Assembly: GCA_013151045.1 (NCBI GenBank)
Contig: JAADIY010000040.1
Span: 1 to 64,000 of the forward strand
Direction: 5' to 3'
Origin: Gammaproteobacteria bacterium
Lineage (GTDB): Bacteria > Pseudomonadota > Gammaproteobacteria > GCA-2400775
DNA length: 64,000 bases
The notes under the pieces were generated by a model. The model was not told the origin of the DNA and made no database searches. It worked only from the letters and a program-made list of their open reading frames with translations. Made by a program: the position numbers and the translations under genes. How positions within the stretch are numbered: position 1 is the stretch's first letter; every line of letters begins with the position of its first letter. Below, in pieces: positions 3,882 through 38,491 of this stretch.

Positions 3882-4471
3882 ATGAGTGATACAAAGCAGC
3901 GACTGTTGGAGACTGCCAAAGATTTATTTATGGCGCGGGGTTATAACGCGGTGGGTACCAATGAGATATGTTTAACTGCTGGTGTTAACAAAGGCACTTT
4001 TTATCATTTTTACAAATCCAAGACGGATCTCGCTCTTGATGCTCTAGATAGCTATGGTAACGAATTTTGTGAAGCTTTCGAGCGGATTGTCAACTCTAAA
4101 GCTGCGCCGATTCGATTAAAAAGATCCAGCAAATCTTCAATATTCCGTATAAATCCAACAAGGCTTGGCAGGGAAAACATGGCTATGCTCAGGGATGCCT
4201 GGTTGGAAATTTGTCGCTGGAGCTTAGCACTATAGACGAGCGAGTCCGCAAACGGTTATTTGCAATCATGTCTCAATGGGGTAAGACGCTTATGCCTTTG
4301 GTAGACGAGCTTATCCAAAGCAAGGCTGTTTCACCTATTAATGTCGAGCAGGGCGCTATGGCATTGGTGAGTTATTTGCAGGGGTTGATCCTGATGGCAA
4401 AGACCAGTAATGATCCGAAAGTGATACAGCGACTCGGAAAAGGTGCGTTGAGTTTGCTCAAGGGTTTATGA
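3882..4471 (+). pseudogene. TetR/AcrR-family transcriptional regulator, frameshifted
   Basis: The first ORF (3882-4235) encodes the HTH domain (QRLLETAKDLFMARGYN, then GVNKGTFYHFYKSKTDL), typical of TetR N-termini. From about codon 80 it turns into nonsense, while the -1 frame continues as KKIQQIFNIPYKSNK, then HGYAQGCLVGNLSLEL, a normal TetR ligand domain running to 4471. The lesion maps to a run of five A at 4118-4122; a sixth A would restore one ORF of about 196 codons. This may be a true loss of function, an error in a homopolymer, or less likely programmed -1 slippage. A dyad typical of TetR operators lies at 5345 in front of the next gene on the same strand, so this was probably the local regulator. 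Confidence 0.85.
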
Positions 4472-35164: not shown

Positions 35165-36532
35165 TTAGAATATGATCGATTCAAATGTGCCGACACTATC
35201 AGGGTTTTCTAATAGCTGATGCGAAATAATAATGGCTGTGGCCGACCAAACCTGATGAAGGTTGGCGCGCCGACCAATTAAAGACCCTGTTTGGCCATCA
35301 TAATATTCAGGCCACTCATCGTTATGCAGACGATCAATGCATAATTCAAAAGCGCGTTCTGCAAGGTGTGCACGACCGGTACGAATAGCCGCCCCAGTGA
35401 AGGCCCACATTAACGTTGGCCAGCTGCCACCGTTGTGATATGACCAAGGCACGTTTTTGGGGTCTGCACCGGTACGGAACTCCCATTCTTTACCAAACAT
35501 AGCTGGGTAGCACAGTTTCATCGGCATTTCGCCCATGATGTCGTCCCAGCGTGATTCACATAAGTTCATGATCTGATCGGCTTGTTCATCAGTGGTTAAA
35601 CCAAATAAAATAGCCAGCAAATTGCCTAAAGAGAAAAAGCGAAAATCGATTCGGCTAGGCCCTACATTACCAACCATATAACCACTACCGTCTTTTATCC
35701 AGCCATCGAGCCAGTGGGGAATGCTCTGCGGGAAGATATTTAAGACATTCACCGCATCAAGTCCGAACTCCTCGCCCTTATAACGATGAATTTCATTAAG
35801 TCGATTCACATCCAGCCAATAAAACAAACGCACATAAGAACGAAGAGTTTGTAAGCGTTTTTGAATGACGCCTAAGAGGTTTTCATTTTCTTCGTTATGA
35901 ATGAGTAATTCTTGCGCAGAAACTAGAGTGCCATAAAATAGTGCTTCGATTTCCAGCGGATGACCATAGACTCCCATGCGACGATCAATCATGAAAGAGG
36001 CATCAGGAACAAGTAGCGCAGGTGAGGTAACAAAAGTCTCGTGTAAATACAATTGCAGAACCAAACGAATCGCTTGTTGAAAATCCGGTGCATGGGCAAC
36101 TTTAATATCGCCCTTACTGATAACGTAGGCGCGTAATAAAATGATCCACCACATTGCAGAGTCAACAGGTGCAACGCGGCCAATAGCACGATCACCAAAA
36201 TCAGCTACTAATTCTTCAGAGCCGTCTTCACAATGTATCACTTTAAAACTTGCTGGCATTAGGCCAACTGCATGACGATGACCTTCCATCTCCACTTGCT
36301 GACCTTGCAGGTGCATCACAGAGCGTAAAAAGTTAAGAACGATTTCGTCACGGCCATCCATCATAAAGACTAATGCCGAGGGAACAAAATCACGGACGAA
36401 ACATTCAGAGTAGTTTTCAGCTTCGGACTCAGATGAGCACGCAGCGAGTGTGCCGACAGGATTACCTTGCCAATATAAAATTGAGCGCTCTAACAACTCA
36501 TAAGCAGACTCAATTGCAGGCCGTACCTTCAT
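35165..36532 (-). CDS. Alkaline/neutral invertase, glycoside hydrolase family 100
   Basis: Hydrolyses sucrose to glucose and fructose in the cytoplasm. The 455-residue protein has no signal peptide and is collinear with cyanobacterial and plant GH100 enzymes: ECFVRDFVPSALVFMM, DRAIGRVAPVDSAMWWIILL, DASFMIDRRMGVYGHPLEI, PWSYHNGGSWPTLMWAF and an acidic ending. The conserved acidic residues (RDF and APVDS) are in place. GH100 is best known from cyanobacteria and plants, so this copy may have been acquired; see findings. It is divergent to hemH. Confidence 0.9.
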   Translation of the reverse strand: MKVRPAIESAYELLERSILYWQGNPVGTLAACSSESEAENYSECFVRDFVPSALVFMMDGRDEIVLNFLRSVMHLQGQQVEMEGHRHAVGLMPASFKVIHCEDGSEELVADFGDRAIGRVAPVDSAMWWIILLRAYVISKGDIKVAHAPDFQQAIRLVLQLYLHETFVTSPALLVPDASFMIDRRMGVYGHPLEIEALFYGTLVSAQELLIHNEENENLLGVIQKRLQTLRSYVRLFYWLDVNRLNEIHRYKGEEFGLDAVNVLNIFPQSIPHWLDGWIKDGSGYMVGNVGPSRIDFRFFSLGNLLAILFGLTTDEQADQIMNLCESRWDDIMGEMPMKLCYPAMFGKEWEFRTGADPKNVPWSYHNGGSWPTLMWAFTGAAIRTGRAHLAERAFELCIDRLHNDEWPEYYDGQTGSLIGRRANLHQVWSATAIIISHQLLENPDSVGTFESIIF

Positions 36533-36757: not shown

Positions 36758-37844
36758 ATGCAGCAAAAAATCCCCGTTACAGGAATATTGATTACCAACC
36801 TAGGTACACCGGATGCGCCTACCGCGAGCGCATTGCGTCGTTATCTTGGCGAGTTTTTATGGGATAAGCGTGTTGTAGAAATACCCCGACCCATATGGTG
36901 GTTAATATTGCATGGCATTATTTTGCGTACCCGCCCAGCGAAATCGGCAGAAGCCTACAAAAGTGTCTGGACAGAAGGCGGATCGCCACTAATGGTCAAT
37001 GGTATTGGTCAAAAAGAAGCGCTGCAAAAGAGACTAACCGAACGCTTTACTGGCCCAGTGATCGTTGAGCTCGCCATGCGTTATGGCCAGCCATCGATAG
37101 AATCAGGTTTAGAGAAATTACGCGATGCCGGTGCGCAACGAATTTTAGTGTTGCCACTGTATCCACAATATTCAGCCGCAACAACGGCATCCACCTTTGA
37201 TGCCGTGGCCAACACACTAAAAAAATGGCGTTGGGTGCCAGAGCTGCGTTTTGTTCAGCACTATCATGACTCGCCGAGTTACATTCAAGCCATAGTGAAC
37301 AGCATAGAAGAGAACTGGCAAGAGAATGGTCGCGCTGACAAGTTGGTATTTTCTTTTCACGGCATGCCAAAACGCACCTTGCTTGCCGGTGATCCCTACC
37401 ATTGCGAGTGTCAAAAAACCGCGCGTTTAGTGGCTGAAAAACTAAATCTAAATAAAGACGATTACTTAGTCAGTTTTCAATCACTGTTTGGTAAAGAAGA
37501 GTGGTTAAAACCCTATACCGATGAAACCTTAAAACGCTTGTCCGCCGAAGGCTTGAAATCACTTGATATCGCCTGCCCCGGTTTTTCATCTGACTGCGTC
37601 GAAACGCTAGAAGAAATCATGATTGAGAATAAAGGCTAAAGGCTACTTTATTGAAGGTGGCGGCGAGCGCTTTAACTATATTTCCTGCCTCAATGTTCGC
37701 CAAGACCACATTACCGCACTAGAAGACGTTATCGTTAATCACACACAAGGTTGGGCAGAAACGAGTGCCGACTGGAATCAAGCTGATGCGGAGCAAGCTT
37801 TAGCAAATAGTCAGGGTCGTGGGCGTGAGATGGGTGCAGTTTAA
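36758..37844 (+). pseudogene. hemH: Ferrochelatase with a 7-bp duplication frameshift
   Basis: HemH inserts iron into protoporphyrin IX, the last step of haem synthesis. The main ORF has the family motifs TNLGTPDAPT, EGGSPL, LPLYPQYS, the active-site His in LVFSFHGMP and the Glu in SDCVETLEEI. It stops at 37639, but the next frame continues as GYFIEGGGERFNYI, then CLNVRQDHITAL, the expected C-terminus. The cause is visible: AAAGGCT is present twice in tandem (37631-37637 and 37638-37644). Removing one copy restores an uninterrupted frame of 359 residues. The truncated product keeps the two catalytic residues but loses about 65 C-terminal ones. I prefer the ATG at 36758 over the TTG at 36707. 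Confidence 0.9.
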
Positions 37845-37879
37845 AGTGTATCTATATTTCATTGTATATGGAGAAAATC

Positions 37880-38491
37880 ATGGAAGAATTTTTGAGGAGT
37901 AATTTGGTAATAATCGCTGTATTGACCGGATTGACCGGTTTGTTTTCTTTAGCTATGAAAGTTTGGCAATACTGGTTGTCACGAAAAGTGAAAATACGTT
38001 TTGATTCTAATCTTGTATGCACTGATGAGGGTGGTTTTTTAGCCCATATTTTAGTTCATAGTAAAAGTCAGCGTGATATACAAGTGCAAGCTGTTAGATT
38101 TGATTTGAAAGTTTGGGATCAATCGCCGAGGCTTGAAGTCGATGGGATTCTCAAAGTTCATAGAGTGCTAGGTATGTTATTTGATCGAGAAGGTACTTGG
38201 TATTTTCCTAGTGATTCTTCACTCAGTGATGAAAGAAATAGACTTCCATATTCACTTGGGGATCATCACACTATGTCGGTTGCTATAGATTTAGATGAAA
38301 TGATGGAAGAGTATTTTAGCTATGGAGAAGGGGGATGTTTTGGGAATAGATTATTGTTTAAATTTGAAATGTTATTTTTGACTGTAGTTGTTAATACACA
38401 AAGAGAAAAGCCGTTCAAATTTTTGGTGAACAGAGAAATAAGACACTATTTGTATGAGAAATACAAAGATGATCCTAGGGTGTTAAAGTGA
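37880..38491 (+). CDS. Membrane-anchored protein of unknown function
   Basis: I choose the ATG at 37880, with GGAG 6 bases upstream, over the earlier TTG and ATG, giving 203 residues. It has one N-terminal membrane helix (SNLVIIAVLTGLTGLFSLAM) followed by a basic stretch WLSRKVKIRF and a soluble, beta-rich domain that would lie on the cytoplasmic or periplasmic side. I do not recognise the family. It is between hemH and lpxH (convergent, only 3 bases to lpxH). Its AT-rich codon use differs from its neighbours, suggesting acquisition. Confidence 0.65.
   Translation: MEEFLRSNLVIIAVLTGLTGLFSLAMKVWQYWLSRKVKIRFDSNLVCTDEGGFLAHILVHSKSQRDIQVQAVRFDLKVWDQSPRLEVDGILKVHRVLGMLFDREGTWYFPSDSSLSDERNRLPYSLGDHHTMSVAIDLDEMMEEYFSYGEGGCFGNRLLFKFEMLFLTVVVNTQREKPFKFLVNREIRHYLYEKYKDDPRVLK

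What the first reader, a model, noticed from the sequence alone, without database searches (positions are those of the whole stretch)
37631..37644. hemH truncated by a perfect 7-bp tandem duplication
Seen: AAAGGCTAAAGGCT; one copy removed gives a normal 359-residue ferrochelatase whose C-terminus is still well conserved, so the event is recent. Known: HemH is usually needed for haem. Inference: either the shorter protein still works (catalytic His and Glu are kept), another hemH or coproporphyrin route exists, or the repeat can expand and contract reversibly.
Basis: seen in the sequence. Interest (0 to 1): 0.65.

Follow-up and report, generated by a model that had tools for sequence, protein, structure and literature searches.

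The report
Frameshifted hemH, probably an assembly error
A haem-making gene in this environmental bacterial draft genome is cut short by a 7-letter repeat, but the same genome carries several similar small breaks in other conserved genes, so this is probably an assembly error or a chance mutation rather than new biology.

Summary
AAAGGCTAAAGGCT lies at 37631-37644. It stops hemH at 293 codons; with one copy fewer the frame runs to 359 residues, as in four congeners. The truncated form is unlikely to work. A predicted full-length congener model shows that the cut falls inside the helix carrying the catalytic Glu and removes the last strand and C-terminal helices. No ferrochelatase examined ends there. 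There is no second hemH and no HemQ in the genome, while HemE, HemF, HemJ and a haem-copper oxidase are present.

The lesion is not alone. A TetR gene in the same window is broken by a 5-bp tandem duplication (4108-4117). A congener comparison found five broken genes in about 355 (hemH, ccoO, a cytochrome c gene, mutM, cheX), against none in about 361 the other way (p about 0.03). Three of them lie within 9 kb. The scaffolds contain short N gaps. Uncollapsed overlaps at scaffold joins explain this best (about 0.5); real slippage mutation is the main rival (about 0.37). Recoding, a working short form and an evolved phase switch are poorly supported. Read mapping would settle it.

The parts
36758..37639 (+). 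hemH (ferrochelatase) as assembled: 293 codons, stop TAA at 37637-37639
   Evidence: TIGR00109 278.6 bits over a cut-off of 124.6; PF00762 354.9 bits, profile 2-282 of 317
37631..37644 (+). perfect 7-bp tandem duplication AAAGGCT x2 that shifts the frame and brings TAA into frame
   Evidence: absent from four congeners
37623..37844 (+). frameshifted C-terminal part of ferrochelatase; only possible early start is TTG 37623
   Evidence: profile 279-316 of 317; matches all congener tails
37358..37360 (+). catalytic His201 codon (human H263)
   Evidence: alignment to human ferrochelatase chains
37601..37603 (+). catalytic Glu282 codon (human E343), on the helix that the truncation cuts
3882..4471 (+). 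second gene of the window broken in the same way: TetR-family regulator, N-terminal domain in one frame (to 4235), C-terminal domain in another
   Evidence: PF00440 in 3882-4232, PF16925 in 4118-4468
4108..4117 (+). perfect 5-bp tandem duplication CGATT x2 at the point where the TetR frame shifts

Best explanation
The lesion is one of several small frame-breaking indels that this draft assembly carries in otherwise conserved genes. The most economical cause is the assembly: where two contig ends with a short true overlap (5-7 bp) were joined without collapsing it, the overlap stands twice and a gene is thrown out of frame. On this view the living organism has an intact 359-residue hemH with one AAAGGCT and makes haem by the ordinary protoporphyrin route. 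Shown: the duplication, the frame, the single copy, the other lesions and their excess over congeners. Inferred: that the cause is a join rather than a mutation.
For: Two genes of the window are broken by perfect short tandem duplications: hemH (7 bp) and a TetR gene (5 bp). In about 940 kb of this genome compared with about 1060 kb of congeners, five of about 355 orthologous genes are broken by small indels in G000 (hemH, ccoO, a cytochrome c gene, mutM, cheX) and none of about 361 in the reverse direction, Fisher p 0.03. Three lie within 9 kb on contig C43 (25.66, 30.56, 34.0 kb), as expected for a poorly assembled stretch. The recent lesions look like uncollapsed overlaps: ATTGG x2 in the cytochrome c gene, GTGAG-GTGAA in mutM, and a short garbled stretch in ccoO; none found is the +1 or -1 slip usual in spontaneous frameshifts (general knowledge). 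The contigs hold N gaps of 11, 24, 32 and 125 bases, so paired-read scaffold joins probably exist. Function argues the same way: single hemH, no HemQ, HemE/HemF/HemJ and a haem-copper oxidase present, no haem receptor over the curated cut-off.
Against: No reads could be examined. Perfect 5-7 bp tandem duplications are also what replication slippage makes. The p value is modest, and the survey was not random: contigs with haem and oxidase genes were fetched first. cheX has several lesions and looks truly decayed. N runs may also be stretches withheld by the operators rather than scaffold gaps. The window lineage has slightly more tail changes than expected (5 in 67 against 3 in 292), which would fit an older real truncation, but the contrast with the sister lineage (2 against 7) is not significant (p 0.15).
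Confidence: 0.5

Rival explanations
1. A real, recent slippage mutation: strand slippage on the 2-bp microhomology in TAAAGGCTA duplicated 7 bp in the sampled population and inactivated hemH. The allele is a minority or short-lived one, or is maintained by haem from neighbours; exact loss of one copy restores the gene.
For: Perfect tandem copies with 2-bp flanking homology; tail otherwise conserved, dN 0.076 against dS 1.88 to the nearest congener; cheX shows that at least one gene of this genome is truly decaying; excess of tail changes on this branch.
Against: hemH is the only ferrochelatase gene, HemQ is absent and a haem-copper oxidase is kept; no haem receptor over its cut-off; clustering of similar lesions in conserved genes suggests an assembly cause.
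Confidence: 0.37
2. The gene is broken in DNA but the product is made or works: the 293-residue form is active, or the tail is supplied by a +1 frameshift at GGC-TAA (two extra residues, Lys-Gly) or as a separate 73-residue chain from TTG 37623.
For: Catalytic His and Glu lie in the first part; a +1 shift gives a 361-residue protein with only Lys-Gly added; the tail frame has a TTG upstream of the stop.
Against: The predicted truncated form loses confidence exactly at the Glu helix (last three blocks 72, 56, 51 against 89, 83, 94 in the full-length congener model), and the last strand and C-terminal helices are missing. None of 97 relatives ends before position 327, and no other listed match in the class sample stops before profile position 312. 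GGC-U is a poor +1 slip site, with no homopolymer or prfB-like signal (sequence and general knowledge). The arrangement exists in no congener, so nothing evolved.
Confidence: 0.09
3. A phase-variable switch: the repeat expands and contracts to turn haem synthesis on and off.
For: A tandem repeat whose unit is not a multiple of three, inside an ORF.
Against: Only two copies, absent from all congeners; contingency loci normally have long tracts and surface or defence functions (general knowledge); the other lesions have different units and sites.
Confidence: 0.03
4. Collapsed small insertion element: an element with 5-7 bp target duplications sits in these genes in the cell and was dropped by the assembler, leaving the target duplication.
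For: Duplication lengths of 5, 5 and 7 bp are in the range of target-site duplications.
Against: Lengths differ, no element was seen, and paired reads could hardly bridge a full-length element.
Confidence: 0.01

Closest known systems
Proteobacterial ferrochelatase HemH (TIGR00109, PF00762)
   Same: Residues 1-292 match the family over nearly all conserved columns, catalytic His and Glu included; the full-length congener model matches human and Bacillus ferrochelatase structures.
   Different: As assembled, the last 66 residues (helix end, last strand, C-terminal helices) are out of frame.
Frameshift by short tandem duplication (replication slippage)
   Same: Perfect 7-bp direct repeat with 2-bp flanking homology, not a multiple of three; exact loss of one copy restores the frame.
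   Different: Seen in one draft assembly only, without reads; similar lesions recur in the same assembly.
Phase-variable simple sequence repeats (contingency loci)
   Same: Tandem repeat in an ORF with a unit not divisible by three.
   Different: Two copies only, no relative carries it, housekeeping gene.

Membership tests
Ferrochelatase HemH (TIGR00109) | score over the curated cut-off | tested here: met
   278.6 bits against a cut-off of 124.6
Ferrochelatase HemH (TIGR00109) | catalytic His and Glu present | tested here: met
   His201 and Glu282 align with human H263 and E343
Ferrochelatase HemH (TIGR00109) | complete C-terminal part in the same reading frame | tested here: not met
   profile match ends at 282 of 317; the rest is in another frame
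Ferrochelatase HemH (TIGR00109) | enzyme activity of the assembled form | not testable with these tools
   needs complementation or assay
Coproporphyrin-dependent haem route | HemQ (chlorite dismutase family, PF06778) in the genome | tested here: not met
   no match in this genome or four congeners; controls rang
Classical protoporphyrin route | HemE, coproporphyrinogen oxidase (HemF) and a protoporphyrinogen oxidase (HemJ) present | tested here: met
Phase-variable repeat locus | multi-copy tract whose copy number varies between strains or relatives | tested here: not met
   two copies here, one in each of four congeners; no strain data
Programmed +1 frameshift | conserved slip site and stimulatory signal in relatives | tested here: not met
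   congeners have an uninterrupted frame and no such site
Assembly join artefact | no single read spans the duplicated overlap | not testable with these tools
   no reads are held; indirect signs only

The most novel reading that the evidence does not exclude
The lesions are real and functionally linked: this lineage is losing haem-based respiration now, with hemH, ccoO (its haem-c motif CWWCH destroyed), a cytochrome c gene and the repair gene mutM all freshly broken while most other haem genes are intact, and several of the lesions could still revert because they are tandem duplications.
Probability: 0.06. Interest if true: 0.5.

Novelty: not a real feature. Interest (0 to 1): 0.13.

Why it matters
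Mainly as a caution. A broken essential gene in a metagenome-assembled genome can look like a biological puzzle, but a check of its neighbours against congeners shows that the same assembly breaks other conserved genes in similar ways. If read mapping showed the lesions to be real, the genome would be a rare snapshot of haem and oxidase genes failing together.

Tried and rejected
Second hemH: none in a 95%-complete genome. HemQ route: absent. Exogenous haem: TonB receptors exist but none passes the haem-receptor cut-off. Natural C-terminal shortening: none in 97 relatives or in the class survey. Programmed recoding: no slip signal, no conservation. A shared scar sequence GTGAGGTGA at three lesions (mutM, cheX, ccoO): looked striking, but in cheX it aligns to homologous sequence with point changes, and GAGGTG is not enriched in this genome, so it was dropped. 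CAAATCA x2 at C43 65358 (rdgB end): read by hand, the native frame is intact, so it is chance. C20 8170 and C8 3369: start or neighbouring-gene differences, not lesions. Exact pattern for other copies of the site in viral contigs: none.

Full report
What is in the sequence. hemH starts at ATG 36758 and, as assembled, ends at TAA 37637-37639 after 293 codons. AAAGGCTAAAGGCT stands at 37631-37644; with one copy fewer the frame runs to 37844 and gives 359 residues. The tail is in the +1 frame (37623-37844). Pfam's ferrochelatase profile is matched to position 282 by the main ORF and from 279 to 316 by the tail ORF. Perfect 7-bp tandem repeats are not unusual in a window of this size (six places), so the repeat alone means little; the comparison with relatives is what identifies a duplication.

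Relatives. The window lies on contig 30 of a 1.95-Mb, 62-contig genome, 95% complete. Four congeners (G001-G004) are held; three of them match named gammaproteobacterial metagenome-assembled genomes (NORP163, NORP174, S146_98). NORP163 comes from the North Pond subseafloor aquifer (PMC9426424). All four have a 359-360 residue hemH without the duplication. In a class sample 170 of 184 genomes have hemH, and every listed match except this one reaches profile position 312 or beyond (not all matches were listed). None of 97 aligned relatives ends before position 327 of the window protein.

Age. The tail is under constraint: dN 0.076 and dS 1.88 to the nearest congener, against 0.037 and 1.63 for the first 290 codons; tails evolve faster than bodies in all congener pairs. 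Polarised on the congeners, the window branch has 3 changes in the first 292 residues and 5 in the 67-residue tail, the sister branch 7 and 2. The first ratio taken alone departs from even (p 0.007), the contrast between branches does not (p 0.15). All ten columns of the tail that are at least 80% conserved are kept. So the break is probably young, with a weak hint of some time without selection.

Would the short form work? His201 and Glu282 correspond to human H263 and E343. In the model of the full-length congener protein (mean pLDDT 91.7) the helix carrying the Glu spans 281-297, followed by strand 302-306 and helices 313-326 and 339-355; the model of the 293-residue window protein loses confidence over its last 23 residues, that is, at the Glu helix. 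The congener model matches human and Bacillus ferrochelatases. Inference: the short form is probably unstable or inactive.

Does the organism need it? hemH is single. HemE, HemF and HemJ are present, HemQ is absent, and a complete haem-copper oxidase subunit I is present. No TonB receptor passes the haem-receptor cut-off. A fixed null allele would be hard to sustain.

Not alone. Reading the rest of the window showed a TetR regulator split at 4108-4117 by CGATT x2, with its N-terminal domain in one frame and its C-terminal domain in another. A first check of some 24 kb of comparable genes around hemH had found no other break, so the survey was widened to about 940 kb of this genome and about 1060 kb of congeners, mainly G002. 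Of about 355 orthologous genes, five are broken in this genome: hemH; ccoO (C43 25.66 kb, in the haem-c motif CWWCH); a cytochrome c gene (C43 30.56 kb, ATTGG x2); mutM (C43 34.0 kb, GTGAG-GTGAA, 5 extra bases); and cheX (C54 66.5 kb, several lesions, a decayed gene). The gene names ccoO, mutM and cheX are read from the protein sequences, not from a family search. In the reverse direction none of about 361 is broken; Fisher p 0.03. The sampling was not random: oxidase and haem contigs were fetched first.

Interpretation. Three lesions in 9 kb, duplications of differing short units, conserved and mutually dependent genes broken at once, and small N gaps that suggest scaffold joins fit uncollapsed contig overlaps best. 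Real slippage is close behind: such duplications are natural, and one gene (cheX) is truly decayed. The choice cannot be closed without reads. Recoding, a working short form and an evolved phase switch each fail on conservation or structure.

Verdict. If it is real, it is an ordinary loss-of-function frameshift.

Noticed in passing
window 3882-4471: TetR regulator broken by a perfect 5-bp tandem duplication (CGATT x2 at 4108-4117); congeners have only distant TetR matches (22-37%), so the gene is particular to this lineage among those held.
   Followed up: yes
G000 contig C43, about 25.6-34.1 kb (L132): Three frame breaks within 9 kb: ccoO (haem-c motif lost), a cytochrome c gene (ATTGG x2) and mutM (5 extra bases). 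Intact in congener G002.
   Followed up: partly
window 37862-38491: A 205-209 residue ORF, with a hydrophobic N-terminus by eye, lies between hemH and lpxH; G001, G002 and G004 have about 20-100 bp there and G003 unrelated DNA. No Pfam, PHROGs or PADLOC match.
   Followed up: partly
window 35165-36532: GH100 (alkaline/neutral invertase) gene that is 95% identical in protein across congeners, well above its neighbours (about 75-89%).
   Followed up: no
G000 contig C33, 40250-44422: One open frame of 1471 residues appears to hold two TonB receptors in a row; a fusion or a lost stop.
   Followed up: no
L125 (G031 contig C3, 1500-5500): Another gammaproteobacterium (1.7 Mb, complete) has a hemH with several stops, apparently a pseudogene.
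   Followed up: no
G000 contig C54, about 66.2-66.6 kb (L178): cheX homologue with a deletion of about 50 bp and several stops, a decayed gene.
   Followed up: partly
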